From Liquorilactobacillus mali (GTDB lineage Bacteria > Bacillota > Bacilli > Lactobacillales > Lactobacillaceae), in NCBI RefSeq assembly GCF_001437155.1, contig NZ_JQAR01000012.1, positions 1-58,204 on the forward strand: a DNA stretch of 58,204 nt. Direction: 5' to 3'. How positions within the stretch are numbered: the stretch's first letter is position 1; each line of letters begins with the position of its first letter. The notes under the pieces were generated by a model that saw only the letters and a program-made list of their open reading frames with translations, was not told the DNA's origin and made no database searches. The translations under genes were made by a program, and so were the position numbers. Shown here one piece after another: positions 5,747 through 56,793 of this stretch.

Positions 5747-5906
5747 AATAGAGTAGTTAGATTAAAAGTCAACTTTTAATCTAACTACTCTATTTATTCT
5801 AATTATATTCCACAGGTCCGTCCGCTTCGAAATACTCATGGTAAAGTACTCTATATATTCTTAATTTCGCATTGATACTCAAATTTTACGACTTATGTCG
5901 CACTCT
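5747..5906 (+). repeat. Dispersed intergenic palindromic element, copy 1
   Basis: A perfect 23-bp inverted repeat (5747-5769 with 5772-5794) with a 2-nt spacer is followed by the family tail: a block resembling CATGGTAAAGTAC, then TTAATTTCGCATTGA, then ACGACTTATGTCGCACTC at the end. It fills the gap between convergent msrB and aspA and probably terminates both. Its stem sequence differs most from the other copies, but the arms remain fully complementary. Confidence 0.8.
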
Positions 5907-5933
5907 CTTACTTTCTTCTACAATAAAATCTTA

Positions 5934-7328
5934 CTACTTTACAAAACTATAATTCTTACTCTTGGCTTGATGAAGTAAATTTGACGAGCCCATTAAGTTA
6001 TCAAAGTCTGCCTCTTCCATAAGATTTTCAGACAGTATAATTTCTCTAATCGAGGAATGCTCTCTCAACGCCCGTTTTACAATTTTTGTCGTCACTTGGT
6101 ATCCTAGAACGGGTGTCAGTGCAGTTGCTAAGATAACTGAATTTTCAACTTCATTCTTGCAAACATCCTGATTTACTTCAATTCCTGCAACACAGTTCTC
6201 AATCAAGGTTGTAATTGTATTTTCCAAATAACTCTCATTTTGTAATAAATTCCTAAAGATCAACGGTTCAAATGCATTTAACTCAAGTTGTCCGCCTTCA
6301 GCTGCCATTGTGATCGCCGCGTCATTGCCAACGACTTGGAAAGCCACCTGGTTTACGACCTCAGGAATAACTGGATTTATTTTGCCCGGCATGATTGATG
6401 AACCTGCCTGTCTTGCCGGTAATCTCAATTCTGCCAAACCAGCTTGTGGGCCGCTTGATAATAGTCTCAAATCATTGCTGAATTTTGACAAATTAACGGC
6501 CAGTGTCTTCAGCACTCCTGAAAATTCAACGAAAACATCACAATTCTGAGTTGCATCTATTAAGTTATCCGCTGGTTTCAAAGGTATTCTTGTAATTGAA
6601 CTAAGCTTCCCTACAATATTCTTTTGATAAATATCATCAGCGTTCAAGCCAGTTCCAATGGCTGTCCCACCAAGGTTGACAAAACTGAGATCATCCTTTA
6701 CATGCTCTAAACGTTTGTAATCTCGTTTAAACAATGAAGCATATGCCCTAAAAGAATTTCCAAAAGTTGTCGGCACAGCATCTTGTAACTGAGTTCTGCC
6801 TAATTTGACAACATCATTAAACTCAGTTGCCTTTTTATCTAATGCTTCAATCAAATCAAGTACTTTAGACTGTACTTTTGGAAGCAACTTCAAAAGTGCA
6901 ACTTTACCGGCAGTTGGAAAAGTATCATTAGTGGACTGTGCTAAGTTAACATCATCATTGGGATGTATTTTTTGTGAATTACTCTGCTTATTTGCCAAAT
7001 TAGCAATTACTTCATTGACATTCATATTGACCGATGTTCCAGCTCCACCTTGAAAAGCAGGAACTATAAAAGCATTTTGTCTATAGTCTTCCTCAAGCAG
7101 CGTATCACATGCAGCAATAATAGCTTTTGCCTTTGTTCCATCCAATGCACCTGAAATATGGTTCGCCATTGCTGCCGCCTTTTTTACCTCAATCAGACTT
7201 ATGATAAGTAACGGGTTCACCGGTTCATTTGAAATTGGAAAGTTGCGTACTGCTCTTGCAGCATTGATTCCAAATAAAGCATCTTCTTCTATTTCTAATT
7301 CACCAACACAGTCTCTTTCAACACGCAT
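5934..7328 (-). CDS. aspA: Aspartate ammonia-lyase
   Basis: This 464-residue member of the aspartase/fumarase superfamily interconverts aspartate with fumarate and ammonia. It carries GGAGTSVNMNVNEV (94-107), GRTQLQDAVP (177-186) and the flexible catalytic loop GSSIMPGKINP (309-319), with an aspartase-like PEVVNQV following. I placed the start at the ATG at 7328 because GGAGG lies 6 nt upstream; a longer reading frame to 7385 has no such site. In lactobacilli the enzyme can feed fumarate or oxaloacetate metabolism. A fumarase is less likely given the N-terminal GAGTSVNMN block. Confidence 0.9.
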   Translation of the reverse strand: MRVERDCVGELEIEEDALFGINAARAVRNFPISNEPVNPLLIISLIEVKKAAAMANHISGALDGTKAKAIIAACDTLLEEDYRQNAFIVPAFQGGAGTSVNMNVNEVIANLANKQSNSQKIHPNDDVNLAQSTNDTFPTAGKVALLKLLPKVQSKVLDLIEALDKKATEFNDVVKLGRTQLQDAVPTTFGNSFRAYASLFKRDYKRLEHVKDDLSFVNLGGTAIGTGLNADDIYQKNIVGKLSSITRIPLKPADNLIDATQNCDVFVEFSGVLKTLAVNLSKFSNDLRLLSSGPQAGLAELRLPARQAGSSIMPGKINPVIPEVVNQVAFQVVGNDAAITMAAEGGQLELNAFEPLIFRNLLQNESYLENTITTLIENCVAGIEVNQDVCKNEVENSVILATALTPVLGYQVTTKIVKRALREHSSIREIILSENLMEEADFDNLMGSSNLLHQAKSKNYSFVK

Positions 7329-7484
7329 GATATGCCTCCATTTATGATTATCATATTTTATAATATGTAAATTATGATATACCAATTACGAAAACATTCA
7401 ATATTTTATCTTCCAACCTCACTCCAAAATCCTTTGATAAGCATTGAATCCATGCTCTGATATTTAAGAAATAAAAGTATACCA

Positions 7485-8447
7485 TTATTTAAGAGCAAGG
7501 CTGTCATTTACTTCATAAATTTTTGCTTCTTTTCTCAGTAACATTTCATCAGACAAAGAAATCTCAATTGGCAGCAAACTATTATATGATTCAAAGAAAT
7601 ATCTACGTGTTTCTAGACAAAAAGCTGTCCGATACACTGTGTAATTAGCTTGATATTTCTTACTTTTGGGCACTACAACACTATTCAAAATATGCCAGCT
7701 ACTTACAAAGTTTTCAGCCTCATTTTCAGGGATATCCGTCCTTTCTCGATAGTAAACTGCCCGTAAAAATCTACCCGTTGGTGTATATGAACTCGATGGT
7801 ACTTTCTTTCCAGCAAAGCTCCCGTTACTGATTCGCTGCGGCACTTGTCTTTGAGCTGTCAAATCACTGCGAATATTAAGATAATCAACTAACTTAGCAG
7901 CTTGTTTCTCAAAATCTGCTGCATTGGTTACTACTCCATAGTTATTCACTATCATCTTCATTGGGTTTTGATCCGTTTCTAAAATTAAAAGCTGACCGCT
8001 TCTATCCGTTATTGCATAATGAAGATGTGGATTTTCATAGGTACGAACTGCATTCTCACCAGACATCAACTGAATATTCGCAATATCAGTAATAATTTCC
8101 TTAATCGACTTGTATTTTCCTAATAAATAAAAAGGCAACTCAAAGGGAGCCAATCCCACGTTGCCCGTGTCTAGCTTCTGATTAAGCTTTGCTCCATGAC
8201 TGAAAGTCAGTTTTTGCACACTTAGGCCGCACTCATTAATGCCATCTGAAATATCGAACTCAAATTGCTTTTTCCTACCAGTTCCAAGTATCCCATACTT
8301 ATTTTGAAATGAACGATCATTATAATCAGTCCGCCAGCGATATTCACGTGGTACAAAGACGGGACCCGCTTGCAGCGAATTCCAATCCATTGTTCTAGAA
8401 AAAACATGTGTCCCATCATTCGCAATTTGTAAGATACTTGTACACAT
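7485..8447 (-). CDS. Linear amide C-N hydrolase (bile salt hydrolase / penicillin V acylase family)
   Basis: This 320-residue Ntn hydrolase starts MCTSI, so removal of Met exposes the catalytic Cys2. Other family active-site residues are in place: Arg18 and Asp21 in SRTMDW, the Asn of INECGLS, the Asn of VVTNAADF, and the Arg of TGRFLRA. The family cleaves amide bonds in conjugated bile salts, penicillin V or acyl-homoserine lactones. Sequence alone does not settle which: the substrate loop after residue 22 (LQAGPVFVPREYRW) does not look like the standard intestinal bile salt hydrolases. It has no signal peptide and is monocistronic. Confidence 0.88.
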   Translation of the reverse strand: MCTSILQIANDGTHVFSRTMDWNSLQAGPVFVPREYRWRTDYNDRSFQNKYGILGTGRKKQFEFDISDGINECGLSVQKLTFSHGAKLNQKLDTGNVGLAPFELPFYLLGKYKSIKEIITDIANIQLMSGENAVRTYENPHLHYAITDRSGQLLILETDQNPMKMIVNNYGVVTNAADFEKQAAKLVDYLNIRSDLTAQRQVPQRISNGSFAGKKVPSSSYTPTGRFLRAVYYRERTDIPENEAENFVSSWHILNSVVVPKSKKYQANYTVYRTAFCLETRRYFFESYNSLLPIEISLSDEMLLRKEAKIYEVNDSLALK

Positions 8448-8505
8448 TACGTTTCCTCCCTTTGACTCCTGCTATCATAACCTTTTCAAAATCGGCTAAT
8501 CATCT

Positions 8506-9486
8506 TTATATAAGATAAAACAAGCGATAAAATGCATGGTTCATGGTTCTAAGATAAAGATTTTTGGCACTCAGTTTTTTTAAATATTTATTGTCTTTTC
8601 GGTTTGGAAACCATTCCTGTGTTTTCTGCCAAATCAGGTCCAATAAGTCAGTTCTAATTTTCTTGTCCTTTAGCTTAATTACCTTGCGCAACAATACATT
8701 TCCAAAAAGATTTCGGTAAAAACGATATTCCAGTTCATCATTGTATTCTTTAAATAATTGCTTCTCTTTATAGTAATTCAGAATATCATCGTATATCCAT
8801 ATGATTTCAGCAATACGTCCAGTCTCGCTATAAGAAATTGAATTGCTGCGCTGTACATAATGAACTTCACACTTTGTATCAATTGCAACTTCGGAAATAT
8901 CATTTAGCCATACAACTACCTTGAAGAAAAAGTTTTGATCTTCATACAGTTTGCCCACTGGAAATGTTACCTTTGTTCTTTCAATCCATTCCCGTAAATA
9001 CAATTTATTCCAGGCTACGACCCTGCCGTTTACTAGATAATCGGCTAATGAATCATAACCTTGACGCACATCCAGTCTTGTCTTATCCTCAAAGTCCCAG
9101 AAGAAATTGCACTCAACGATTTTTTTTGAACCATCATCACTTTGAGCGTACATTCGCTCCAGCATCTCGGATTCGACAAAATCATCTGAATCTATAAACA
9201 ATAAATAATCTCCGAGCGCATATTGTAAAGCATAGTTGCGAGCATCAGATAAACCGCCATTTTGCTTGTGCAAAGTTCGTATCTGCTCAAAGTTTGCTTG
9301 GTATTCATCACACAAATTTCCGGATCCATCTGTGCTTCCGTCATCAACAAGGATAATTTCAAAATCATTTTTATTCATCGTCTGTACAAGTAGACTATCC
9401 ACACATCTCTTCAAATAGTTTGCAACATTGTAAACTGGCACAATTACACTTATTTTTTTAGTCTTCGTATAATTTTCTTCGGTCAT
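8506..9486 (-). CDS. Family 2 glycosyltransferase
   Basis: This 326-residue protein has a GT-A N-terminal domain: SVIVPVYNVANYLKRCVDSL (13-32), the nucleotide-binding DDGSTDGS near residue 49, and the metal-binding SDD of FIDSDDFVES near residue 97. The C-terminal third is charged and lacks membrane helices. It transfers a sugar from a nucleotide donor, probably onto a cell-surface glycan or protein. It is the last of three glycosyltransferase genes with gaps of 11 and 20 nt, a single transcription unit. Donor and acceptor are unknown. Confidence 0.88.
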   Translation of the reverse strand: MTEENYTKTKKISVIVPVYNVANYLKRCVDSLLVQTMNKNDFEIILVDDGSTDGSGNLCDEYQANFEQIRTLHKQNGGLSDARNYALQYALGDYLLFIDSDDFVESEMLERMYAQSDDGSKKIVECNFFWDFEDKTRLDVRQGYDSLADYLVNGRVVAWNKLYLREWIERTKVTFPVGKLYEDQNFFFKVVVWLNDISEVAIDTKCEVHYVQRSNSISYSETGRIAEIIWIYDDILNYYKEKQLFKEYNDELEYRFYRNLFGNVLLRKVIKLKDKKIRTDLLDLIWQKTQEWFPNRKDNKYLKKLSAKNLYLRTMNHAFYRLFYLI

Positions 9487-11305: not shown

Positions 11306-11383
11306 AATTACCTGACCATTTCCTCTACATAATATAATGAAGATTTCCTACAGTTTATTATACCCGATTGTTCAAAAAAATGA

Positions 11384-11599
11384 GAGTGCGATATAAACCA
11401 CAAGGGTAGAATATCAACTTAGATTTACAAATAAGTATAAAAAAGCTAGATCAAAATTAATTTTGACCTAGCTCTTATTTGTTCTCTATAAACATGTTCC
11501 ATAATTCAAATTCTTCGTACAGCTTTTAAAAATTATAGCAAAGTACTTACTACATTCGTAATTTCGCATTAACATTCAGAATTTCCTTATATTGCACTC
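11384..11599 (+). repeat. Dispersed intergenic palindromic element, copy 2, with terminal inverted repeats
   Basis: Left end GAGTGCGATATAA (11384-11396) and right end TTATATTGCACTC (11587-11599) are inverted repeats matching at 12 of 13 positions. Inside lies a 14-bp palindrome (11444-11473) with the TCAAAAT/ATTTTGA core, then the conserved tail with ATAAACATGTTCCATAA and ATTCGTAATTTCGCATTAA. It fills the gap between the AroM gene end and the glycosyltransferase unit, and contains no reading frame. I take it as a small non-autonomous mobile-element-like repeat of 216 bp. Confidence 0.8.
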
Positions 11600-11611
11600 C
11601 ATGATCTCAAA

Positions 11612-12292
11612 TTAAACAAACTCTGAAGTTAGCTTCGCCATCAATACATTCGACAGTATTGTTGGTTTGCCAGAATTTTCAGCAACAATTCTTTGCCATT
11701 TTTCGTTATAACCCATACAATCCATCAAGATATAGTCAACTTTGCTTTTTAGTGCTTGTCCAACTGCGGCAAAGTGTTCTTTTGTTCCCGTATAAGGTGA
11801 CGCATCAATGTAAACGGGATTTAGCCCAGCTTTATGGAATTTGCCGTCCATTTCCTTGATCTGTTCAGGTAGGGGAACGACAACTCCTAATTTTCTGTCA
11901 GCAATAACTAATTTCACAACTTGTGGGATGATTTTGTCGGGTTCCAAAAATACACTGTTAGTTGTTTTGAGGTTATTGAATTCTCCAGTACATAAAAGCC
12001 AAATTAAAGAATATCCTTTATTTTCAGCCTCATTAATTTTCTTTTGAATTAATGGTTCCACTTTACTACGATCCATTTGTACCGCTCTTCCATCCCGCAT
12101 GCGTGATACCAAAGTATATTCGTTTCCTACCCCCTCTTTAGGAGCAAGCTGTTCTTGAACTTCCTCATATGTTAATTCATCCAGTGCCCCTGCCTGAACT
12201 AAATCAAACTCTGGCCCAAGGATTTTCTCAACCATTGGTGCCACGTCACTTCTTGGAGATTGACCAATTGTAAGCATATAAACTTTTTTCAT
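11612..12292 (-). CDS. AroM family protein
   Basis: This 226-residue protein matches the AroM family: MLTIGQSPRSDVAPMV at the start, LVQAGALDELT near residue 37, then LLCTGEF near residue 99 and a C-terminal MDCMGYNEKW. AroM has no established enzymatic role; its fold is related to the Asp/Glu racemase superfamily, and two cysteines (LLCTG and MDCMG) lie where that superfamily keeps its catalytic pair. It is the last gene of the five-gene operon, 14 nt after the transporter. Activity is unknown; a racemase or lyase on an amino-acid-like compound is a guess. Confidence 0.85.
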   Translation of the reverse strand: MKKVYMLTIGQSPRSDVAPMVEKILGPEFDLVQAGALDELTYEEVQEQLAPKEGVGNEYTLVSRMRDGRAVQMDRSKVEPLIQKKINEAENKGYSLIWLLCTGEFNNLKTTNSVFLEPDKIIPQVVKLVIADRKLGVVVPLPEQIKEMDGKFHKAGLNPVYIDASPYTGTKEHFAAVGQALKSKVDYILMDCMGYNEKWQRIVAENSGKPTILSNVLMAKLTSEFV

Positions 12293-12306
12293 TAAGGTCC
12301 ACTCCT

Positions 12307-13884
12307 TTATTTAATAGTCTTAAACATTGAAGTTCCAAATGAGTAGAGTGCATCAGCTGCGATGAAACCAGATGCAAGTATTCCCATTGGTGCTTCCATT
12401 TTTTTACCCCAAATTTTCACAACAACGATCCTAATCAGCAGTCCAATTAGAACTGCCCAACATGCATTTAGGGTTGAGATCAGTAATCCAGTTGCTAACA
12501 TCACTCCTAATTGTTTGCTTGGGCCACCAATTAGTTGAATAATCGCCCCAGGAATTGCCCAGATTGCCATTTCTTCAGCAATTTTAACAGAAGCTCCCGC
12601 CTTGATTGTTGAAACATAAACTGCATCCACTGGTGGAAATAAATTCTGTGAGAATAAAAAATGATATGTTGTGGCAATAATTAAAAGAGCAATCCCAAAG
12701 GCAATCAATCCAGCATGATACTGATGTTTACGCCCTTCTTTTTCAATTTGCTTATCTTTACCATTACCACGAATAATATAGCCCGTCTTGAAATCAAATC
12801 CCATATCAGCAAAAGCTGGACCAGTTGCCGTACTGAATGCTACCATGATAGCTAATGCTTCATGCGGAAAGCCAAGCAAAATTCCTATTAACAAAGTGAT
12901 CAAGGCAACTGCAAAGGCAGGAAACCAGCCTGAATGCATTGCAGCAATTCCAACAATAATCTCATGCACAATAGCAGCAAAAGCAGCATAAAATAAGAAA
13001 AGCATAAACATTCCAATTGACATATGGGAGTACAATCCTCCCATGATTGCCACTAACAATGAAATTAAAAAGTAAAGTAAGTATCCTAAGCCTAAAGTTT
13101 TTTTAGCAGAAGCCGATGATCTTGTCATTTCTTCTTCGGATTCAACATCAATTTTGCCTTTATTTCCGAAAATCAAGACTCCTGCTTGAATTAACGCAAC
13201 AATCCCAGCACCAATCATTATCCCATGCGGAACATACATTGAGCTCAAATTCAAATTAAGCACTGGCATTGCATATTGTGTAATTAAAAGTCCTAAGCCA
13301 AACATTCCTAATGCAAATTCATTACCGATAAAAGCAACACCAAAGGCTGACATTGGAATCGATAACATTGAACCAATAAGTCCGATTACTGCACCCACAC
13401 CCAGTAATCCTGCGCGTTTACCACCTTTTTGACCTGCAAGAATAGATTCAGCTGTAGCAACACCTGGAGCCCACACTTCTTTTGCTGGAAATAGCTTAGA
13501 ATCAAACAAGCGATAAAGCATGAATGAATCAACGAACATTGCTAAAGCTGCTCCGATTAAAGCAGGAAAAATCAAATCAGTTTTCCCTAAGACAAATGGA
13601 ATACCAATTGGAATTAGCAAACTATTAGCTGCTCCAAAAGTTGCTGACGAGATTGCAGTTTGAATTAAGTTCTGGCGGTGAATAGATTGATATTTTTTGA
13701 AAAATTTCATTGGTATTCTTGATATCAACATTGCAATCAAGGCACCAATAATAGCTGTATTAGGAGTAACTCCTAGTGTAACAATAATTTGAATACCAAT
13801 TATTGCACCAAGTACACTAGTTAAAATAATCAAAATCATCGTTGCAAGTTCAAATACTTTTGGATGTTTTTCTTCATTATTCAT
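12307..13884 (-). CDS. OPT-family oligopeptide/metallophore-type transporter
   Basis: This 525-residue protein is almost wholly hydrophobic, with about 14 membrane segments, and shows the OPT-like features GAANSLLIPIGIP, GVATAESILAG and SMYVPHGIMIGAG. OPT proteins import short peptides or metal-chelating compounds with protons. It is shorter than fungal OPT members (about 700+ residues) but in the bacterial range. Its start overlaps the racemase stop by 4 nt (ATGA), indicating translational coupling. Its neighbours (aminopeptidase, racemase, AroM, DUF1177) suggest import of a small peptide-like substrate. Confidence 0.8.
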   Translation of the reverse strand: MNNEEKHPKVFELATMILIILTSVLGAIIGIQIIVTLGVTPNTAIIGALIAMLISRIPMKFFKKYQSIHRQNLIQTAISSATFGAANSLLIPIGIPFVLGKTDLIFPALIGAALAMFVDSFMLYRLFDSKLFPAKEVWAPGVATAESILAGQKGGKRAGLLGVGAVIGLIGSMLSIPMSAFGVAFIGNEFALGMFGLGLLITQYAMPVLNLNLSSMYVPHGIMIGAGIVALIQAGVLIFGNKGKIDVESEEEMTRSSASAKKTLGLGYLLYFLISLLVAIMGGLYSHMSIGMFMLFLFYAAFAAIVHEIIVGIAAMHSGWFPAFAVALITLLIGILLGFPHEALAIMVAFSTATGPAFADMGFDFKTGYIIRGNGKDKQIEKEGRKHQYHAGLIAFGIALLIIATTYHFLFSQNLFPPVDAVYVSTIKAGASVKIAEEMAIWAIPGAIIQLIGGPSKQLGVMLATGLLISTLNACWAVLIGLLIRIVVVKIWGKKMEAPMGILASGFIAADALYSFGTSMFKTIK

Positions 13885-14546
13885 AATCTATTCCTCCTGA
13901 ATTGGGATCCATTGCCATTTAAATAAAAATTAACCATTGAACCTTCAGCATCAACAGCATCAATAACTGGTACATCAATAACCTCCTGCAAAAGACTCTT
14001 TAAATTTATTGTTCCCATGCCAGTACATGCGAATAAAATTTGTTGAGCTCCTTGTTCAATTAATTGTTTAACCGCTGTTATACAATTTTCTTGACCGACA
14101 GATGTTAGTAAATCATTAGTATTATTAATATTTTTTGGTTTAATGTATCCCGCAAATAATTCATCCAAATTTTCTTCAATCACGGTAGGAACGATCGAGG
14201 TAATCCCTATAACTCCTGTTTTCTTACCAGTTGAACGTGCAATTAACGCTGCACTGCTTCCTGCACCAATCACAAATAATCCAGTTTCTTCACGTAATTG
14301 TTCAATAGCCGGATCAGCCGCACAACTAACAATTAGGTCTGTACAACCTTGTTCTTTGAATTGCTTCCCTAATTCAAGAATTTTGGGAACTGCTAATACT
14401 TCTGTTTCATCATTATGTATTCCGTTATATTGATTCGGAATGCATGCACTTTTAATACTCAATCCATATTTCTTTTCGATAACCTGAGCATGTCGGTTGA
14501 CTTCCTCAGGCCTTTCTAAGGTAACTACTCGTATCAAACCAATCAT
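13881..14546 (-). CDS. Aspartate/glutamate/hydantoin racemase family protein
   Basis: This 221-residue protein has the two-cysteine arrangement of cofactor-independent racemases: Cys75 in LIVSCAADP and Cys174 in LFACTGMG, each following a beta-strand. The spacing of about 100 residues fits the family. It probably epimerises an amino acid or related compound by two-base proton transfer. Its place between an aminopeptidase and an OPT transporter suggests it acts on a product of peptide hydrolysis. The exact substrate (Asp, Glu, hydantoin, other) is not readable. Confidence 0.82.
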   Translation of the reverse strand: MIGLIRVVTLERPEEVNRHAQVIEKKYGLSIKSACIPNQYNGIHNDETEVLAVPKILELGKQFKEQGCTDLIVSCAADPAIEQLREETGLFVIGAGSSAALIARSTGKKTGVIGITSIVPTVIEENLDELFAGYIKPKNINNTNDLLTSVGQENCITAVKQLIEQGAQQILFACTGMGTINLKSLLQEVIDVPVIDAVDAEGSMVNFYLNGNGSQFRRNRL

Positions 14547-14562
14547 TTTTTAAAATTCCTCT

Positions 14563-15507
14563 CTATATGAATTTTCCTTCCTTCATAATTAACTCATCAT
14601 CCAAATAGAATGTCGGTTCTAAAATAATCCCATCCAAATGAACTCCCGCGTCAGTTTCTCCACCAAATGTCTTATTACTACCAAATGCCACGTGAACTGT
14701 ACCAGCAACCTTCTCATCTTCTAAAATGTTGCCTGTAAGTCTAGCCGCCCTATTTGTTCCTATCCCAAATTCAGCGACATTACGTCCCAAATTTGGCCCA
14801 AGAATATCAAGAATCGTTTTACTGCAATACCCCTTAATATCTAGCAAACGTCCATTTTCAATGATGAGTTTAATTGGTTCTTTAAGTTTCCCAACTCCAA
14901 CAAATGAACCATCAACTATCAAAGTTCCATTCGCAGAACCTTCAACTGGTGCAATGTATGCTTCACCAGAAGGTAAATTCCCAGATTCACCAGAATTTTT
15001 ATAGACACCAACGCTTCGAATTCCAACACGGTTTTCAACTGAAAAAGTAAATTGTTGGCCATTTTTTACGATTCTTACATTTTTGGTATCATTTAGTTTT
15101 TCAATAAGATTATCCGTCAGTTTCTCAACTTCATCATAATCTGCTGTAATTGCACCATTAGCAAACATCTCAGACGTTATCCCTGGCATAGTAGCCACAC
15201 GTGCTCCAGCTAAAACTGCATTTTCCTTGGCCTTTGTATGTGTTACCGAGTTTTTGGTAATACATACAACTACATCAGATAACTCCATTGCTTTTGCCGC
15301 AATTAAGGGAGGCTCTTCTCCAGCTCTACTAGAATTTGGAATTTCAATATATAATGGGTTATCAGTTAGATACTTTGCTGCTTTGTATAGCGCTTTTCCC
15401 AATTCACTCTTATCCTCATCACTTAGAATTAAGACATTTTCGGTGGATTTTACACCAAGATTATTTTTCAAAATTTTTTTTGAAGTCTCAATAATTGATT
15501 CGCTCAA
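14563..15507 (-). CDS. M29-like aminopeptidase (AmpS/leucyl aminopeptidase family)
   Basis: This 314-residue protein resembles the M29 thermophilic aminopeptidases but is about 90 residues shorter than the usual 400. Candidate metal ligands are present in order: Glu182 in PSGEAYIAPVEGSANG, Glu246 in AEFGIGTN, His272 in GTVHVAFGSN, and His290/Asp292 in VHLDGIIL. The N-terminal part (residues 20-130) covers a shortened first domain. It likely removes N-terminal residues from an imported peptide, or hydrolyses a related amide. It is the second gene of the operon, 26 nt after DUF1177. Confidence 0.82.
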   Translation of the reverse strand: MSESIIETSKKILKNNLGVKSTENVLILSDEDKSELGKALYKAAKYLTDNPLYIEIPNSSRAGEEPPLIAAKAMELSDVVVCITKNSVTHTKAKENAVLAGARVATMPGITSEMFANGAITADYDEVEKLTDNLIEKLNDTKNVRIVKNGQQFTFSVENRVGIRSVGVYKNSGESGNLPSGEAYIAPVEGSANGTLIVDGSFVGVGKLKEPIKLIIENGRLLDIKGYCSKTILDILGPNLGRNVAEFGIGTNRAARLTGNILEDEKVAGTVHVAFGSNKTFGGETDAGVHLDGIILEPTFYLDDELIMKEGKFI

Positions 15508-15533
15508 AATTTTTCATCTCCTAGATTAACCTA

Positions 15534-16475
15534 CTAGCCTACTCTATTGCCAAGAGTTTGCAGCCTGCTCATTGAACCGTATAACTCCTCAAGATGATCG
15601 AATTCTTTTGCATCGTAAAACTCAATCTTGCCATCTGTAAATTCCTTTGCAACTTCAATAACAAAACGCACGGCATCTGCAATATCTACCTCATGACTAG
15701 CACCTGTCCCGCAACCGGGGACTGCACTTATCGTTGTAATGGCAACACCAACAACGGGAGCTTTAGTCGCAACTGAAGGTTGGAGAATAGAATTAATATG
15801 ATATACATCATTCCCGTATGGTGTAATATCTTGTGTACTTACGGGAAATGTATGTGCCAGTTGACCTGTAGCCATTTCCATAAGTCTAACTAGATCTGAA
15901 TTGACTTTTAAAACATATCCCGATTTAACAGTTGGTGAAAGTGATATTCCCTTATGGTTAATAATTACATTTCCTTTTGTTGTATCAATGGATAAAATTG
16001 CCTCCATCTCTGACGTGACTTCATGTTTGTTCATCTCCATAATTGTTACCGGGGAGTCCATAAAGTCTACTGGGTAATGCGGTGCAGTTGGTGCATTTGG
16101 ACAAATATGTGTCGTCACAATTACATCACCGGGTAACTCATCTTTTTTTGTTTTCATCAATGCTATCTTGTAGGCAGCTGCAATCGCCGCAATCGCACCA
16201 TCACCATCCGATACCAATCCGATTCTGCTTGGGCGGGCTCCAATTCCACCTAATCGTCCAACTATTCCAAGTGTCGGTGCATTGCCACCACTGCTTTTCC
16301 CACTAGCACCAGGAATTGTTATCTTGACAAAGTCTGTTTTGCCCTTTTCACCACTAACTTCAGTAACCTTCACTTTTACAAACTCAAATTTTTCAAAAAG
16401 TGCTGCAATATCTTTTCCACTTACTCGACCATCATCAATAATTTCTTTTACTTCTATTACTTGTTTTAATACCAT
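15534..16475 (-). CDS. DUF1177 domain protein
   Basis: This 313-residue protein matches the DUF1177 family along its length: GLVSDGDGAIAAIAAAYKIALM in the middle (here partly quoted), DVIVTTHICPNAPTAPHYPV, a MEMNKHEVTSEMEAILSIDTTKG stretch, and a C-terminal VPGCGTGASHEVDIADAVRF. No member has an assigned activity that I know of. The histidines and acidic residues in THICP, PHYPV and ILSIDTT could bind metal, but that is inference. It is the first gene of the operon, facing the IclR gene across 80 bp. Confidence 0.82.
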   Translation of the reverse strand: MVLKQVIEVKEIIDDGRVSGKDIAALFEKFEFVKVKVTEVSGEKGKTDFVKITIPGASGKSSGGNAPTLGIVGRLGGIGARPSRIGLVSDGDGAIAAIAAAYKIALMKTKKDELPGDVIVTTHICPNAPTAPHYPVDFMDSPVTIMEMNKHEVTSEMEAILSIDTTKGNVIINHKGISLSPTVKSGYVLKVNSDLVRLMEMATGQLAHTFPVSTQDITPYGNDVYHINSILQPSVATKAPVVGVAITTISAVPGCGTGASHEVDIADAVRFVIEVAKEFTDGKIEFYDAKEFDHLEELYGSMSRLQTLGNRVG

Positions 16476-16555
16476 TTAAATCACTCCATTTTTGAATACT
16501 CTATTTTTTTCTTTGATTAAAGTTTTAATAAATAGTAAACTATAAAAAATTAGTT

Positions 16556-17368
16556 TTGGGATGTGGAACTTTGTTAAAAACACTTAATCAAGCTTTAGAA
16601 ATATTAAATCTCTTCACACAAGAACATAGTCGTTGGACATCTAAGGAAATATCGCAAAAATTGGAAATTCCTGTAATCAACGTCTATCGTATTCTTGAGA
16701 CATTTGTTGCAAATGAGTACTTGTTAAAAGATAAGGACTCAAAACAATACGAAATTGGACCAGCTCTAACTATTCTTAGCTATCTCGCATTTCAAAAATA
16801 CAATGTGTATACAATGATTCATCCTTATCTTGAAGAACTTATGAAAGAAACAGGAGAAGCAGTATATCTGATAAAGAGCGAAGCAAATTATGCTATAAAT
16901 GTTGATGCTGTAATCCCTGAAAATAAAGTAAGCTTTGCTGTCTCGCTTAACAAAAAAATTCCACTGTACTCTGGTGCATCTTATTGGTCAATACTTGCTT
17001 TTCTGCCCCAAAAAATAATTGATGAAACTCTCTCTTCTCCTTTCACCAACCTATTAAAACCGAAAAAACTAACACCCGAAAAACTACAAAAAGAATTAGA
17101 AAAAGTTCGTAAAACAGGTTGGTCAGTAAGTTATGAAATCACAACTCCTGACGTTGTCTCCATATCTGCGCCAATATTTTCAAATAAAAAAATAGTTGGT
17201 GCTTTAACAGTTGCCAAACCAATTTTTAGAACTAAAAAAGAACAAGTCTCAGTGCTAGGCCAGCTAGTAAAAACAACTGCTAATCAAGTTTCGGTGACTC
17301 TAGATAAAAACAACATCCAATTAAATTCATATACATTTTTCAAAGAGCGAGGAAAAGCTAGTCTATAA
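16556..17368 (+). CDS. IclR-family transcriptional regulator
   Basis: This protein of up to 270 residues has an N-terminal winged helix-turn-helix (SKEISQKLEIPVINVYRILE) and a C-terminal IclR effector domain (GEAVYLIKSEANYAINVD, YSGASYWSILAF, GWSVSYEITTPDVVSISAPI). The start is uncertain: TTG at 16556 lacks a ribosome site, and TTG at 16571 would fit the usual LKTLNQALEILNLF opening better. It is divergent from the DUF1177-to-AroM operon and almost certainly controls it in response to the substrate or a product. The shared 80-bp gap holds a loose AGTTT...AAACT inverted repeat (16520-16542) as a candidate operator. Confidence 0.88.
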   Translation: MGCGTLLKTLNQALEILNLFTQEHSRWTSKEISQKLEIPVINVYRILETFVANEYLLKDKDSKQYEIGPALTILSYLAFQKYNVYTMIHPYLEELMKETGEAVYLIKSEANYAINVDAVIPENKVSFAVSLNKKIPLYSGASYWSILAFLPQKIIDETLSSPFTNLLKPKKLTPEKLQKELEKVRKTGWSVSYEITTPDVVSISAPIFSNKKIVGALTVAKPIFRTKKEQVSVLGQLVKTTANQVSVTLDKNNIQLNSYTFFKERGKASL

Positions 17369-17411
17369 AATTTCATTATATGAATTAATGTTTCATATAA
17401 TGAAATTTATA
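17366..17411 (+). terminator. Strong hairpin after the IclR gene
   Basis: AAATTTCATTATATGAA and TTTCATATAATGAAATTT form a 17-bp near-perfect stem with a short loop, starting at the IclR stop codon. It is AT-rich, without a long T-run. Confidence 0.65.
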
Positions 17412-17541
17412 ATTAAGATAGTAGCAAACAAAAATTAGTAAATCAACTTATTTTCTAATTTTTTTTTAATTTTAAGTGTATTTCTTTTAATCTAACTTTT
17501 TTTATTACTTTTACTTTTAAAAACAAAATTGTTAAAAAAAT

Positions 17542-17707
17542 GGAGCCAGTGCAAATTCTAATTTTGCACTAGCTCCTTATTTTTTCTCTATAAACATGTT
17601 ACATAATTCAAATTCCTCGTCTAGTTCCTAAAAATCATAGTAAAATACCTACACATTCGTAATTTCTCATTAACATTCAGAATTTACCGTTTTATATTGA
17701 ACTCCTT
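17542..17707 (+). repeat. Dispersed intergenic palindromic element, copy 3
   Basis: The palindrome GGAGC-AGTGCAAA / TTTGCACT-GCTCC (17542-17576) is followed by the conserved tail: TATAAACATGTTACATAATT, then ATTCGTAATTTCTCATTAAC and an end at TATATTGAACTCC. The left terminal repeat is not recognisable. It occupies most of the gap between the convergent IclR and glycosylase genes; 17412-17541 is AT-rich with nothing else I can call. Confidence 0.75.
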
Positions 17708-17712
17708 TTAAT

Positions 17713-18482: not shown

Positions 18483-18587
18483 TATGTACTCCTTATGCTT
18501 CTTTTTATTTCTTTTCTAAGCATACATTCTAATTATCCATACTGCAAAAAATCAAACTTAGATAACTGAGGATCCAATAAAAAGACT

Positions 18588-18830
18588 TGAAGTGTGACAT
18601 AAGTCTGTAAAAATCTGACTACTAATGAGAAATTGCAAATATAGCGCGTACTTTACTATGAGCAATTCGAGATTAGGCGGAGAATTTTGACTTATGGAAC
18701 ACGTTTATCCGCAACAAAAAAGGAGCTAAGTCAAAAATTAACTTTTGACCCAGCCCTTACTCAATTTGTCAGTTTCGTGATTTTTTCAGTGTTCAGAGTT
18801 CTATCTAACTCCACCAACTGTCACACTTCA
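18588..18830 (-). repeat. Dispersed intergenic palindromic element, copy 4, complete with perfect 12-bp terminal repeats
   Basis: TGAAGTGTGACA (18588-18599) and TGTCACACTTCA (18819-18830) are perfect inverted repeats bounding 243 bp. In minus orientation the element carries a unique left part, the palindrome (18722-18755) with TCAAAA/TTTTGA core, and the full tail (GGATAAACGTGTTCCATAAG, CATAGTAAAGTAC, GACTTATGTCACAC). The right end is 5 nt from the stop codon of the RarD-like gene. This is the best-preserved member and defines the element. It fills the gap of about 350 bp upstream of ybgA. Confidence 0.85.
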
Positions 18831-26292: not shown

Positions 26293-26371
26293 TTTTTGTT
26301 AAAAAAATATTTAAAGAACAGTGATAAATAAGTTACCATAAAAATTAACACTAAGTTAAATATTCAAAAAA

Positions 26372-26546
26372 GAAAGTGTAGAATGTACTGACAAAATTTT
26401 AGTATCAATATGAAATTATGAGTATACCGAATATTTTGACTTTGCTATGAGTAATTCAAAGTTAAACGAAGAATTTTGGCCCATAAAACATGCTTATGAG
26501 GGACAAATAAAAAAGCCAAGTCAACATTTAAGTTTGCCCTAGCTTC
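26372..26546 (-). repeat. Dispersed intergenic palindromic element, copy 5 (degenerate)
   Basis: Read on the minus strand: an imperfect palindrome (26513-26545), then AAGCATGTTTTATGGG, CATAGCAAAGTC, CATAATTTCATATTGA and a decayed end near 26372 (CTACACTTTC). It matches the tail order of the other copies with many substitutions and sits between the convergent DUF72 and def genes. Confidence 0.7.
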
Positions 26547-26580
26547 CTTAATTCCATATGATTGTGTTCTATATTTTCTT

Positions 26581-29851: not shown

Positions 29852-29912
29852 GGTTTTTACCAATAACATCCCACTCTTACCTGCTTTAATAGGTTACAGT
29901 ATCAGCACAAAA

Positions 29913-30065
29913 AAGGACTAGATCAAAAGTTAAATTTTGATCTAGTCCTTTTTTTCAGATAACCGTGTTCCATAAGTCAAATTTATCCTTTTACCCCAAC
30001 TTACTCACAGCAAAAAATCTTATGCTGCAAACTCTTGTTAGTTTTCAAATTTGATCTTCGTACAT
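29913..30065 (+). repeat. Dispersed intergenic palindromic element, copy 6
   Basis: A perfect 16-bp stem AAGGACTAGATCAAAA / TTTTGATCTAGTCCTT (29913-29950) with a 6-nt loop and a T-run of 8 is followed by the diverged tail: AACCGTGTTCCATAAGTCAAA and CACAGCAAAAAATC. It separates the convergent efp and nucleotidase genes, and is a good bidirectional terminator. Confidence 0.75.
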
Positions 30066-30108
30066 TATACAATCATTTCTTTTTTGATAATCCCCCATAA
30101 AAATCTGG

Positions 30109-36387: not shown

Positions 36388-36412
36388 TTAATATTTAGTT
36401 TGTATAAAAAAT

Positions 36413-36540
36413 GAGTGCGACATGAGTCGTATAATTTGGATACTAATTCGAGATTGACTGAAAAATCTTGAATTATGGAACACATTTATATGGAAAAATA
36501 GAGGAGCTGGTTCAAAATATAACTTTTGAACCAGCTCCTT
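36413..36540 (-). repeat. Dispersed intergenic palindromic element, copy 7 (internally shortened)
   Basis: On the minus strand a perfect 16-bp stem AGGAGCTGGTTCAAAA / TTTTGAACCAGCTCCT (36502-36539) leads into AAATGTGTTCCATAATTCAA and ends ACTCATGTCGCACTC. About 35-40 nt of the tail (the AGCAAAGTAC...TTTCGCATTAA block) are missing relative to copy 4. It separates the convergent NADH oxidase and FMN reductase genes. Confidence 0.8.
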
Positions 36541-36613
36541 TCTTATACGAATTTGAAGTTAATAATGAGCATGAGTTTTGTTGTTAGCGTTAGCCGCTGA
36601 AATCAGATAAATG

Positions 36614-43125: not shown

Positions 43126-43161
43126 ATTTTTTTATCTTTTGACTCTTTAACACAAAAAAAA

Positions 43162-43225
43162 CTGGATCAAAAATTATATTTTGACCCAGCCCTCTATTTA
43201 TCCCCGTGTTTCATAATCCGAGCTA
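43162..43225 (+). repeat. Dispersed intergenic palindromic element, copy 8 (truncated)
   Basis: The palindrome CTGGATCAAAA / TTTTGACCCAG (43162-43189) is followed by only the first part of the tail (CCGTGTTTCATAATCC) before the end of the DUF1003 gene. The rest of the tail is missing. Confidence 0.7.
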
Positions 43226-43228
43226 ATA

Positions 43229-43984
43229 CTATTCTTTTTTATCTTTTTCTTCAAAATACTGTTGTAATCTTCTTAATTCACTTACTTGTGACTCAATAGA
43301 ACCCAGCATCTCCGTTTGAATCTTCTGAATTTGCAGCAAGTTAGGTTGATCTTGCTGAATCAAATGATCAATTTTTGAATGCAGGACTCTAATCTCTTCT
43401 TCTGACTTTTGATTAACCTGATAATCATTACGCGACTCCATCCGGTCATACTCAGATGAGCGATTTTGACTCATCATTATCAGTGGTGCTTGGATGGCAG
43501 CCACCATACTTAAAAACAGATTCAGCAAAATAAACGGATATGAATCGAAATGTACGCCAAACCAATGAAATACATTTAAGAGTATCCAGAAAATCATAAT
43601 CCCAACAAAACTTAAAATAAATGCCCAGCTACCACCAAAATGTGCAACTCCATCAGCTATTTTTTGTCCAAAAGTCAAAGAATGTTCTAGTTGTTCACGT
43701 ACATCTACCATTTGATAGGCATCATTTTCCATCACACGTGTTAATTTTCTAGTTAACTTGTCATTTTGTCGGTAATCTTTTGCAATCATCTGATCCATTT
43801 TTTTCACACGATATTGCACTAAATGCTCACTACAGATAAATTGGCTATCGGCCGCTTTAGGATAGTCTCTTCTTATCAGCGCTCTTAGAGAACCATCTAA
43901 GTCTTTTAGAAAAACTCCATCTACTAAGTCATATTCCTTTTGATCTACAAGACATTTTAGTCTTTGCTCCATATTTTTCTTCAT
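43229..43984 (-). CDS. DUF1003 family membrane protein
   Basis: This 251-residue protein has two transmembrane helices (near residues 118-136 and 150-172) with the DUF1003 core WAFILSFVGIMIFWILLNVF and DSYPFILLNLFLSMVAAIQAPLIMMSQNR, then a glutamine- and glutamate-rich coiled coil (residues 190-250). The N-terminal 70 residues have two cysteines (C11, C51) and could form a small sensing or metal-binding domain. Function is unknown for the family. The ATG at 43984 or the second ATG at 43972 could be the start. Confidence 0.88.
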   Translation of the reverse strand: MKKNMEQRLKCLVDQKEYDLVDGVFLKDLDGSLRALIRRDYPKAADSQFICSEHLVQYRVKKMDQMIAKDYRQNDKLTRKLTRVMENDAYQMVDVREQLEHSLTFGQKIADGVAHFGGSWAFILSFVGIMIFWILLNVFHWFGVHFDSYPFILLNLFLSMVAAIQAPLIMMSQNRSSEYDRMESRNDYQVNQKSEEEIRVLHSKIDHLIQQDQPNLLQIQKIQTEMLGSIESQVSELRRLQQYFEEKDKKE

Positions 43985-49788: not shown

Positions 49789-49789
49789 A

Positions 49790-53933: not shown

Positions 53934-53934
53934 T

Positions 53935-53976
53935 CTAGCTACGCCAAAGTTGCCATTTTTGAATGTTTAAAATCAT
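53935..53976 (-). CDS. trpL: trp leader peptide
   Basis: This 13-residue frame (MILNIQKWQLWRS) has two Trp codons separated by two residues, then TAG, 1-2 nt before the first attenuator segment. AGAAAGG lies 11 nt upstream of its ATG. Stalling at the Trp codons would favour the 2:3 pairing and read-through into trpB. Confidence 0.78.
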   Translation of the reverse strand: MILNIQKWQLWRS

Positions 53977-54012
53977 AATACAGTCATCCTTTCTGTCATT
54001 AATTGTCAATTA

Positions 54013-54040
54013 TTATTACTTTATTCTAATCAAAAGTCAA
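54013..54040 (-). promoter_or_regulatory. Promoter of trpL-trpB
   Basis: TTGACT (54035-54040) and TAATAA (54013-54018) on the minus strand, spaced by 16 nt, lie 36 nt upstream of the leader ATG. Confidence 0.65.
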
Positions 54041-54060
54041 GTGCTTTATCATTTTAAAAA

Positions 54061-54349
54061 TAGACTTGCTTTAACCGTTACATTTGTAAAATGAAAAGTA
54101 AATCTCTACCGATCTGCAATCATCAAAATTATAACATTCTAAACATTCTTCGCTATGCGCCTCGCAGCCACAATTTTTCCTTCCCTAATAATGTCATAAC
54201 TGGTTCGTTAAACAAATGATTGTACACAATACAGTTCTAAATAATGTAATTTCACACCTTTTTATTTACGATTAATTTGTTACAATTATTTTTAATTACA
54301 TGTATGTGATATAATTGGCATATAATATCGAAAGATAGGGGAAAGTTAA
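54061..54349 (+). promoter_or_regulatory. Intergenic region ahead of the glutamine transporter
   Basis: Between the divergent trp promoter and the transporter I see only a TATAAT (54310-54315, preceded by ATGTGA) and a second TATAAT (54321-54326) as likely -10 boxes, and a GGGGAAAG ribosome site just before 54350. No riboswitch, repeat or frame is evident. Confidence 0.4.
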
Positions 54350-55792
54350 ATGAAAATTAGATTAAAGCTTTTTTTTGCGTTATTTTTTGCGTCACTAGGA
54401 CTGTTTGCATGGCAAGCTCCTACAGTGCACGCTGAGACCACTTATACAATTGGTACAGATGTTACCTTCCCACCATTTGTTTATGCAAATTCCAATAACA
54501 AATATGTAGGAATTGATATGGAATTAATCCGCTCTATTGCTAAAGAGGAAGGTTTTAAAGTCGATATAAAACCACTTGGTTTCAATGCCGCCGTCCAGTC
54601 TCTCAGCTCTGGACAGATTGATGGTGTGATCGCTGGAATGACGATTACCGATGAACGTAAACAAACTCTTGATTTCTCAACACCTTACTATGAATCTGGA
54701 ATTGTCATGGCAGTTGCCCCTAGTAGCAAAATCACAAGTCTTAAGGGGCTGAAAGGCAAAACGGTTGCCGTCAAGACTGGTACACAAGGTGCCTCATATG
54801 CCAACTCAATTAAAGATAAATATGGATTCAAAGTCGTTACATTTGATGATTCTGATAATGTCTATAATGATGTTAAAACAGGAAACTCTGCAGCATGTTT
54901 TGATGACAGTGCCGTACTTAATTATGGTGTTAAAACAGGTTTAGGACTAAAAGTTGTCACAAAACCTGCAGATGTTGGTCAATACGGATTTGCTGTAAAA
55001 AAAGGCCAAAACCAAAAATTACTAAAGATGTTCAATGCTGGCTTGGCTAAGCTAAAGAAAAATGGCAAATATGATCAAATTATCAAGAAGTATACTGGTA
55101 AAACAGCCACAAGCAAGACAAGTAAATCAAACTCTGAAGACAGAACATTCTTAGGTCTTTTGCGTCAAAACCAACAAGCCATCTTAAACGGTATTTTGGA
55201 AACACTTAAGTTAACAATTGTTTCTATCATTTGTGCAACAATCTTTGGGATTCTTGTCGGATTACTTGGCGTTTTACCCAATAAATTTGCACGTGGCGCT
55301 TCTACAACAATTATCTATATTTTCAGAGGGTTGCCGTTGCTAGTGCTGGCCTTGTTCATTTACAATGGTATACCAAGTTTGACTGGTACCAAGATTCCAG
55401 CCTTTGTAGCTGGTATTATAACCTTGACGTTAAACGAAGGAGCTTATACTGCCGCATTTGTTAAAGGTGGGATTGATGCCGTCGACAGTGGACAAATGGA
55501 GGCTGCAAGAAGTCTAGGATTGCCTTTTGGCAAAGCAATGCGCAAAGTCATTTTGCCACAAGGTATCAAAATAATGATTCCTTCATTCATCAATCAATTT
55601 ATCATTACCTTGAAGGATACTTCGATTCTATCAATTATCGGAATTCTAGAATTAACTCAGACAGGTAAGATTATTATTGCTCGTAACCTTGAAGGATTCA
55701 AAGTCTGGGCAATCATTGCAGTAATCTATCTCTTAATTATCACATTGCTAACATTACTATCTAAGTGGGTTGAACGGAGGATTAATGACTAA
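54350..55792 (+). CDS. Amino acid ABC transporter substrate-binding/permease fusion (GlnPH type)
   Basis: This 480-residue protein has a signal sequence (residues 1-28, ending TVHAE), a family 3 solute-binding domain (residues 30-255, [40 protein letters not shown]), and a permease with five helices (270-480) with [21 protein letters not shown] as the EAA loop. The receptor is tethered to its own channel, as in lactococcal GlnPQ. Glutamine, glutamate or asparagine are likely substrates; I infer this from the family. It overlaps the ATPase start by one base (TAATG). Confidence 0.93.
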
Positions 55793-56532
55793 TGGCAAAT
55801 TTAAAAGTAGATATATCAGATCTAAATAAAAGTTTTGGTGATAACCATGTTCTAAAAGGTATTGATTTCAAAGTTGCTAATAATGAAGTTGTTGTGCTGA
55901 TTGGACCATCAGGTTCAGGTAAAAGTACACTTTTACGCTGTCTGAACAGGCTTGAGGCCCCTACTTCCGGAAAAGTATCAATTGATGGGAAGGATATTAG
56001 TAATACCAAGACCAATATTGATCAGGCACGCGAAAATATCGGAATGGTTTTTCAGCATTTTAATCTCTTCAACAATTTGACAGTTGGCCAAAATATTGAA
56101 CTGGCTCCCGTTGAATTGGGCAAGCTTTCAAAGGAAGATGCTGCTGCACAAGCAAAAAAATTGCTTGCAACTGTTGGTTTGGAAGATAAATACGATGCTA
56201 AACCGCAATCTCTTTCTGGTGGACAAAAGCAACGTGTTGCGATTGCACGGGCACTTGCAATGAATCCCGATATTATGTTATTCGATGAACCAACATCAGC
56301 TCTTGATCCTGAAATGGTCGGCGATGTTTTAGAAGTAATGAAGAAACTGGCTAAGGAAGGGATGACAATGGTCGTTGTTACCCATGAAATGGGCTTTGCA
56401 AAAGAAATGGCCGATCGTGTTGTCTTTATGGCCGATGGTGTGGTCGTAGAAGAAGGAAAGCCTGAAGATGTCTTCGATCATCCACAAAATGAACGAACAA
56501 AGGCATTCTTGGACAAAGTTATTAACGTCTAA
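55792..56532 (+). CDS. glnQ: Amino acid ABC transporter ATPase
   Basis: This 246-residue ATPase has Walker [17 protein letters not shown] (35-50), signature [15 protein letters not shown] (near residue 138), Walker [15 protein letters not shown] and switch [17 protein letters not shown]. It energises the upstream fusion protein. Length is typical of polar amino acid importers. Confidence 0.95.
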
Positions 56533-56559
56533 AAAATAGTATCAGCATGGCATTTAGCA

Positions 56560-56793
56560 CGAGTGTTTCAATGTAGTTAGACAAAAATAGAACTGATAGA
56601 ATACATTTATGTGTAATAGCTACCAGGGGGTTAGGCCAAAATTCAACTTTTGGCCTAACCCCTTATTTATTTCGGATAAACGTGTTAAATACGTCAAAAT
56701 TCTCCGTTTTACTTTGAACTACTTATAGCAAAGAACATGCGATATTCGTAATTTCGCGTTAATAATCAAATTTTACCGACTTGTGTCACACAT
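56560..56793 (+). repeat. Dispersed intergenic palindromic element, copy 9
   Basis: A perfect 15-bp stem GGGGTTAGGCCAAAA / TTTTGGCCTAACCCC (56627-56662) with 6-nt loop is followed by the full tail: CGGATAAACGTGTTAAATA, TATAGCAAAGAAC, ATTCGTAATTTCGCGTTAAT and CGACTTGTGTCACAC. The left end GAGTGTTTCA (56561-56570) and right end TGTCACACA are imperfect terminal repeats. It fills the gap of about 320 bp between glnQ and the acyltransferase gene. Confidence 0.82.

What the first reader, a model, noticed from the sequence alone, without database searches (positions are those of the whole stretch)
5747..56793. Nine-copy family of dispersed intergenic palindromic elements with terminal inverted repeats
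Copies at 5747, 11384, 17542, 18588, 26372, 29913, 36413, 43162 and 56560 share, in one order, a palindrome with a TCAAAA/TTTTGA core, a CGTGTTCCATAA block, a TAGCAAAGTAC block, a TTCGTAATTTCGCATTAA block, and a GACTTATGTCRCACTC end. They average one per 6 kb, are all outside genes, occur in both orientations, and show decay and internal deletion (copy 7, copy 8). No reading frame is inside. This is the pattern of a small non-autonomous element that spread in trans. I know of no named family that matches.
Basis: seen in the sequence. Interest (0 to 1): 0.8.

Follow-up and report, generated by a model that had tools for sequence, protein, structure and literature searches.

The report
Terminator-swapping mobile repeat, likely IS1182-moved
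The nine repeats are copies of a small non-coding jumping DNA piece, spread through this lactobacillus genus and built like one already known in enterococci; it appears to be moved by a hairpin-seeking IS1182 transposase and to swap a gene's transcription stop signal for its own.

Summary
In detail: all nine copies are confirmed, and the genome gives 148 model matches (150 of 2159 candidates scored; a few are two strands of one place). It is mobile: a related genome has 30 copies averaging 93% identity with unrelated flanks, and L. mali KCTC 3596 has two near-consensus copies where this genome has only a hairpin. There is no significant target duplication; a minority of copies keep remnants of a target stem. 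Its ends match the inverted repeats of IS1182-family insertion sequences, and 9 of 32 contig ends examined in the window's own genome, the window's left edge included, stop inside an IS1182-type end. IS1272 (IS1182 family) is published to replace stem-loops in this way. A cross-genus model finds the architecture in 52 of 295 Lactobacillales genomes and in both E. faecalis loci tested, which fit EFAR/Efa-1. So "non-autonomous element spread in trans" holds; "no named family" does not. It is a new member of an EFAR-like kind; the added value is a likely mobiliser.

The parts
5740..5909 (-). copy 1, near full length, between a SelR-domain gene (+) and a - gene (convergent)
   Evidence: nhmmer E 3.9e-29; unrelated plain hairpins at the orthologous site in G012 and G010
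11429..11603 (-). copy 2; a possible opposite half-copy sharing its terminator lies at 11381-11481 (+)
   Evidence: E 1.7e-28; opposite half weak, E 0.003
17529..17708 (-). copy 3
   Evidence: E 3.9e-27
18586..18770 (+). copy 4, full length; left end AAGTGTGACATAAGTC
   Evidence: E 2.7e-49; 13/18 to the IS1182 inverted repeat
26370..26559 (+). copy 5, degraded
   Evidence: E 1e-23
29901..30072 (-). copy 6, after efp
   Evidence: E 5.8e-21; G010 has an unrelated plain hairpin here
36409..36551 (+). copy 7, internal deletion in the long hairpin
   Evidence: two blocks, HMM 4-48 and 80-179; G006 has a plain hairpin here, G010 an element
43145..43241 (-). copy 8, only linker plus terminator left
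   Evidence: HMM 101-178, E 1.5e-7
56614..56798 (-). copy 9, full length, near consensus
   Evidence: E 7.3e-47
56524..56675 (+). probable older partial copy in opposite orientation sharing copy 9's terminator (nested insertion, inferred)
   Evidence: HMM 58-180, E 2.5e-13; long-hairpin part alone only E 0.18
58127..58143 (+). apparent half of a tenth terminator hairpin, interrupted by another repeat at the contig edge
   Evidence: by eye
1..55 (+). right end of an IS1182-family insertion sequence (rest is off the contig): likely mobiliser family
   Evidence: 16/18 to the IS1182 repeat; same 55 nt at four other contig ends of this genome; matches at 98.2% the 3' end of an annotated IS1182 transposase region on an L. 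plantarum plasmid

Best explanation
The repeats are copies of a ~165-bp non-autonomous element (MITE). An IS1182-family transposase recognises its ends in trans (inferred from matching ends and a resident IS1182) and inserts it into DNA stem-loops, mostly transcription terminators. Part of the target hairpin is lost, no target duplication is made, and stem remnants can be left outside the element (shown by flank statistics and best at one strain pair). Because the element carries its own terminator hairpin, which looks bidirectional, it replaces the stop signal it destroys; that would make insertions nearly neutral and explain copy numbers around 100 at gene 3' ends (inferred). Terminators of older copies appear themselves to serve as targets for new copies and for the IS (several cases seen).
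For: Structure: two hairpins (on a hand-typed near-L002 sequence, z -7.2; on an exact G013 copy); covariation across genera, 38 double-change cells vs 14.1 shuffled and 3-12 in slid controls. Mobility: 30 G013 copies, pairwise identity mean 0.933 (0.824-0.988), sharp ends and unrelated flanks; two G006-only near-consensus copies where G000 has only a hairpin. Stem remnants: anchored inverted flanks in 79 full-length copies 4.65 vs permuted 3.95 +/- 0.17, 0 of 20000; direct repeats p 0.06. Context: convergent 46, tandem 41, divergent 8 of 95 copies vs 25/42/22 of 89 background gaps (Fisher p 0.006 convergent, 0.005 divergent). Ends: Liquorilactobacillus IS1182 repeat GGGGCTGTGCCATAAGTCC; IS1182 repeats elsewhere GAGGCTGTGACATAA(GTC); element left end 16/18 and right end 14/18 to the latter. 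IS1182-type ends at 9 of 32 contig ends of the window's genome, 0 of 32 control stretches. An element linker abuts the IS end in 3 of 18 IS1182 copies by pattern (1 of 2000 random single 60-mers; each IS has two flanks), two more by eye. Published mechanism: PMC4923244, PMC5678879 (passages).
Against: No transposition was observed. Intact IS1182 genes pass the family cut-off in only 3 of 14 genus genomes (G010, G008, G012). G000 itself gave no NF033551 match and one broken fragment with P0001, so there the IS is seen only through contig ends. G003, G004 and G007 show no NF033551 match and G013, with the freshest copies, one degenerate gene; drafts lose such repeats, but that was shown only for G000. 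No matching ends were found around the G008 and G013 genes. Strong stem remnants are a minority (12 of 79 score >=8, 3.6 expected). IS1182's own flanks are marginal (18 copies, p 0.085). The hairpins at sites A and B in G000 are themselves element-like (weak HMM hits), so these are probably remains of older copies, not virgin sites. Sites are not rooted: copy 7, present in G010, looks like a loss in G006.
Confidence: 0.8

Rival explanations
1. The element is moved by an IS200/IS605 or RAYT-type tyrosine (Y1) transposase acting on its hairpins, as REP elements are.
For: Hairpin ends and no target duplication are typical of that class (recalled). PF01797 is found in 8 of 14 genus genomes.
Against: PF01797 is absent from 6 of 14 genus genomes, including G013 and G006 with fresh copies, though drafts can hide repeated genes; the ends match IS1182 repeats instead.
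Confidence: 0.05
2. The repeats are a conserved, non-mobile terminator or small-RNA family kept by selection.
For: Terminator hairpin covaries; excess of G-U over A-C cells in the long hairpin of 22 copies (125 vs 77).
Against: Similar copies with unrelated flanks, presence/absence between genomes 91-96% identical, patchy presence within the genus.
Confidence: 0.03
3. It is moved by another DDE element, for instance the IS3-like repeat at the window's right edge.
For: That repeat also sits at an element terminator in 3 of 3 contig ends, by eye.
Against: Its visible 57-nt end shows no clear match to the element's ends by eye, and it splits the terminator hairpin rather than replacing it.
Confidence: 0.05
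4. Spread and removal reflect homologous recombination or gene conversion between existing repeats, with little transposition.
For: Replacement of window 11506-17712 in L. mali KCTC 3596 has breakpoints in or next to copies 2 and 3; the G000 hairpins at sites A and B are themselves element-like.
Against: Does not account for copies at new stem-loops with stem remnants or for unrelated hairpins at orthologous sites.
Confidence: 0.07

Closest known systems
EFAR (Enterococcus faecalis repeats; recalled, original paper not held) / Efa-1 (PMC2267715, passages and section 11)
   Same: Size (Efa-1 163 bp, 65 copies), intergenic, pair of adjacent stem-loops; EFAR is recalled as inserting into unrelated stem-loops, deleting most of them and keeping stem parts. 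Model R2 matches two E. faecalis loci.
   Different: Different genus and internal sequence; mobiliser here proposed as IS1182. The published consensus was not available for direct comparison.
IS1272 / TnSha1 and the IS1182 family (PMC4923244, PMC5678879, passages)
   Same: Stem-loop or terminator target, part of the stem-loop lost, no target duplication; inverted repeats of IS1182 relatives match the element's ends.
   Different: Those encode a transposase; this element encodes nothing and carries its own terminator. IS1272's own repeat was not compared here.
BOX, RUP, SPRITE of Streptococcus pneumoniae (PMC3049150, listing and start of abstract only)
   Same: Small interspersed repeats; SPRITE is rho-independent-terminator-like (PMC10969869, passages).
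   Different: No sequence relation was tested; RUP is recalled as moved by an IS630 relative.
REP/RAYT repeats (PMC3733652, passages)
   Same: Extragenic palindromes thought to be moved in trans.
   Different: GTAG-type tags and Y1 transposases; PF01797 does not track this element in these drafts.

Membership tests
EFAR / Efa-1 | about 163-170 bp, intergenic | tested here: met
   169-nt core from G013, copies in gene gaps; Efa-1 163 bp, intergenic type, in PMC2267715
EFAR / Efa-1 | two adjacent stem-loops | tested here: met
   Efa-1 'pair of adjacent SLSs'
EFAR / Efa-1 | integrates into stem-loops, keeps stem remnants (recalled) | tested here: met
   clear in a minority of copies
EFAR / Efa-1 | sequence and structure relation to E. 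faecalis copies | tested here: met
   R2 (no E. faecalis sequence in its alignment) hits two E. faecalis loci, E 1.4e-11 and 3.7e-14 in 74 kb; that these are EFAR is inferred
EFAR / Efa-1 | match to the published consensus | not testable with these tools
   paper not held under the recalled DOI
IS1182-mobilised MITE | ends match inverted repeats of the IS | tested here: met
   16/18 and 14/18 to GAGGCTGTGACATAAGTC
IS1182-mobilised MITE | IS present in the host genome | tested here: met
   IS1182-type ends at 9 of 32 contig ends in G000, no intact gene assembled there; complete copies in G010 and G012
IS1182-mobilised MITE | IS present in every genome with fresh copies | tested here: inconclusive
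   G003, G004, G007 none, G013 one degenerate; drafts may hide repeats
IS1182-mobilised MITE | transposase moves the element | not testable with these tools
   needs an assay
Y1/RAYT-mobilised REP | Y1 transposase in genomes with fresh copies | tested here: inconclusive
   absent from G013, G006 and four others of 14, but drafts may hide repeats
any Rfam RNA family | covariance model match above gathering score | tested here: not met
   in the window only the tRNA passes; two further matches lie far below their cut-offs

The most novel reading that the evidence does not exclude
EFAR-like double-hairpin elements across Enterococcaceae, Listeriaceae and Lactobacillaceae are one superfamily of non-coding parasites of IS1182 transposases: they seek terminator hairpins, replace them with their own terminator, and so persist by being neutral 'terminator swaps', turning over the stop signals of their hosts' genes.
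Probability: 0.6. Interest if true: 0.68.

Novelty: new member of a known kind. Interest (0 to 1): 0.52.

Why it matters
It joins two literatures that I did not see joined: stem-loop-targeting EFAR repeats and stem-loop-replacing IS1182 elements. If true, a miniature element can rewrite the 3' ends of about a hundred genes per genome without breaking them, and the source of EFAR mobility becomes testable with one transposase and one marked element. It also warns that terminator sequences in these bacteria can be mobile DNA.

Tried and rejected
Rfam: no family. RNAalifold on 22 G000 copies found only the terminator. Direct target duplication: not significant. Y1 transposase as mobiliser: does not track the element, with the draft caveat. 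G013 flanks for empty sites: the best match, G004, is only 67% identical. Inverted repeats around the G008 and G013 IS1182-like genes: no matching ends (for L259). The first filter for IS flanks (6 copies) was too strict and was redone (18 copies from 28 loci). Literature, open-licence papers only: EFAR terms, MITE terms with enterococci, IS1182 and IS1272, 'IS1182' with 'miniature inverted' (6 papers). I saw listings; no title joins EFAR to IS1182, and no search combined those two words. 'find' gave 0 for EFAR and MITE in PMC5678879 and 0 for EFAR in the review PMC10969869. PMC4666352 (passages) was not relevant.

Rows dropped: one search used 79 full-length copies of 141 core hits in 120 loci; some G000 and G006 copies are orthologues, so not all are independent. 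One search classified 95 copies; duplicates and loci without a core hit were left out, genes were called by a simple ORF rule, and the 89 background gaps come from G000 and G006 only and include gaps that hold elements; two of 11 pattern hits had five mismatches and are treated as chance, leaving 9; the 32 ends are from 16 of 78 contigs.
Full report
Observation. The element HMM gives at most 8.5 bits on 20 dinucleotide shuffles of the window. They lie in intergenic gaps; copies 4, 5 and 7 read forward, the other six reverse. BLAST with copy 9 gave 43 matches in the window's genome. A covariance model from 22 copies gave 148 at E <= 1e-3 with only 150 of 2159 candidates scored; some rows are the two strands of one terminator, so 148 is not an exact copy number either way.

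Anatomy. In the orientation that ends with the terminator, the G013 majority sequence runs GAGAGTGTGACATAAGTCGGGAAAATTTGAGTGCTAACTCGAAATTACGAACATAGCGAGTACTTTGCTATGAGTAATTCGAAGTTAGACGGAGAATTTTGACTTATGGAACACGTTTATCCGGAATAAAAGAGGGGCTGTGACAAAATTTAACTTTTGTCACAGCCCC. A makes up 0.67 of the last six left-flank bases and T 0.68 of the first six right-flank bases, against 0.33 and 0.32 further out (79 copies), so the terminator looks usable from both sides. In 22 G000 copies only the terminator gives a consensus structure, and every row listed ends at the model's terminator end while many lack the left part. The closest named genome is Liquorilactobacillus mali KCTC 3596 (PotD 100%; DNA about 94-96% over the matched stretches).

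Spread in the genus. With R1 at E <= 1e-6, 12 of 14 genomes of the genus and 0 of 27 genomes of other genera had matches. G013 had 150 of 150 scored candidates match. Its 30 best copies are 82-99% identical (mean 93.3%), with sharp ends and unrelated flanks, as expected of recent spread.

Sites with and without the element. L. mali KCTC 3596 (G006) is 91-96% identical over long stretches. Site B: G006 has a near-consensus copy (E 8e-53) framed by CATAGGGA ... TCCCTATG, where G000 has only a hairpin AATAGAGGGACTAGG...CCTGGTCCCTCTATT; the outer stem is kept in part. Site A: another G006-only copy (E 6e-53) where G000 has only a hairpin. Both G000 hairpins give weak element hits, so they are probably terminators of older copies. 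Site C is a degraded G000 copy absent from G006. In the window, copy 1 is replaced by unrelated plain hairpins in G012 and G010, copy 6 by one in G010, and copy 7 by one in G006 while G010 has an element. The events are not rooted one by one, and copy 7 looks like a loss in G006.

Integration signature. For 79 full-length copies the complementarity between left and right flank, anchored at the element, is 4.65 against 3.95 +/- 0.17 for permuted pairs, 0 of 20000 permutations reaching it; direct repeats are not significant (p 0.06). An earlier test on the 30 G013 copies alone gave p 0.011 for inverted and 0.11 for direct flanks. Strong cases are a minority: 12 of 79 score at least 8, 3.6 expected. 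Copies avoid divergent gaps, 8 of 95 against 22 of 89 background gaps (p 0.005), and prefer convergent ones, 46 of 95 against 25 of 89 (p 0.006). In tandem gaps the element reads with the genes 21 times and against them 20 times.

The mobiliser. On plasmid pL11822-1 of L. hordei an element copy (86% identity to a G013 copy) lies near an annotated IS1182 transposase with perfect 19-bp inverted repeats GGGGCTGTGCCATAAGTCC. The protein passes NCBIfam NF033551 (315 bits, cut-off 270). G010 has 25 matches to it, 16 over the whole protein; the nine copies looked at (eight from G010, one from G012) have the same repeats and are 1795-1797 bp. IS1182 elements elsewhere end in GAGGCTGTGACATAA (L. plantarum, L. 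pentosus) or GAGGCTGTGACATAAGTC (E. raffinosus, with one mismatch, and L. murinus); those of E. faecium and E. hirae share only GTGACATAAGT. The element's left end matches GAGGCTGTGACATAAGTC at 16 of 18 positions and its right end at 14 of 18. The window has four positions with 13 or more matches: the left ends of copies 1, 4 and 9, and one at 38-55; with up to 3 mismatches there are 2, against 0.01 expected. The one at 38-55 is the end of an IS1182 cut by the contig edge. Of 32 contig ends examined (16 of 78 contigs), 9 stop about 55 nt inside one of three IS1182-type ends, against 0 of 32 stretches 200 nt further in (p 0.002). Two of the three types match, at 98.2% and 84.6%, the right and left ends of an IS1182 on an L. 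plantarum plasmid, the right one overlapping the annotated transposase; the third type equals the L. hordei IS. So such ISs are multicopy in this genome and, by inference, collapsed in the assembly: no intact gene was found there. At the window's left edge G006 has an element terminator where this genome has the IS. In 3 of 18 IS1182 copies an element linker directly abuts the IS end (1 of 2000 random single 60-mers), with two more by eye (L257, L271): the IS seems to have taken the place of the element's terminator. Against the link: only G010, G008 and G012 pass the IS1182 cut-off, and G003, G004, G007 have no match.

Known mechanism. PMC4923244 (passages, part of the abstract included) reports that IS1272, of the IS1182 family, and TnSha1 insert into hairpins, several confirmed as terminators, delete part of the stem-loop and make no target duplication. 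PMC5678879 (passages) calls this IR-replacing transposition. Both describe what the flanks here show.

Relatives. The right half of the element matches E. faecium plasmid and Listeria phage-contig DNA at 79.5%, and elements with the same plan occur there and in Lactiplantibacillus and Latilactobacillus plasmids. A 15-sequence alignment across genera keeps both hairpins with covariation above shuffles (38 double-change cells against 14.1; slid controls 3-12); the structure was taken from one of the sequences. Model R2 finds matches in 52 of 295 Lactobacillales genomes, 21 of 75 genera, own genus included, at E <= 1e-6 with nine candidates scored per genome. Of 21 such loci printed, one (L208, at a contig edge) came out empty and most of the other 20 show, by eye, the same order of end, linker and terminator and fold into two hairpins. 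An E. faecalis record of 747 kb has 10 places similar to one of these, and R2 matches both E. faecalis loci fetched. PMC2267715 describes Efa-1 in E. faecalis: 163 bp, 65 copies, intergenic, a pair of adjacent stem-loops. PMC3733652 names EFAR elements of enterococci among MITEs. My memory of the EFAR paper (170 bp, L-shaped two stem-loops, insertion into unrelated stem-loops with stem remnants) comes from no call.

Conclusion. The finding is a real mobile element, a new Liquorilactobacillus member of an EFAR-like kind. What I did not see in the open-licence listings is the link to IS1182 transposases and so a concrete mechanism: a non-coding passenger that swaps terminators. Shown: structure, spread, strain polymorphism, stem remnants in a minority, end identity, resident IS ends. 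Inferred: that IS1182 transposase moves it, that insertion is neutral, and that the E. faecalis loci are EFAR.

Noticed in passing
58147-58204: The window's right edge ends in a 57-nt repeat that also ends contigs C77 (left) and C17 (left); in 3 of 3 cases, by eye, it splits a terminator hairpin of the element. A plasmid relative in L. brevis lies beside IS3-family genes: a second insertion sequence that seems to target the loop of this hairpin.
   Followed up: partly
11506-17712: In L. mali KCTC 3596 this stretch is replaced by different DNA, with breakpoints in or next to copies 2 and 3, as if recombination between element copies swapped a gene block.
   Followed up: no
L187 2720-3137: Between the plasmid element and IS1182 lies what looks by eye like a broken IS200-type gene.
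   Followed up: no
L065, L075, L089, L091 (G013 copies): These copies are preceded by the end of another long-hairpin unit without its terminator, as if a new element replaced the terminator of an old one.
   Followed up: partly
L020: In one G000 copy the inner part of the long hairpin is replaced by an unrelated hairpin.
   Followed up: no
plasmid records CP069367-CP069369 labelled Klebsiella pneumoniae: They carry enterococcal-type elements; contamination or mislabelling is likely.
   Followed up: no
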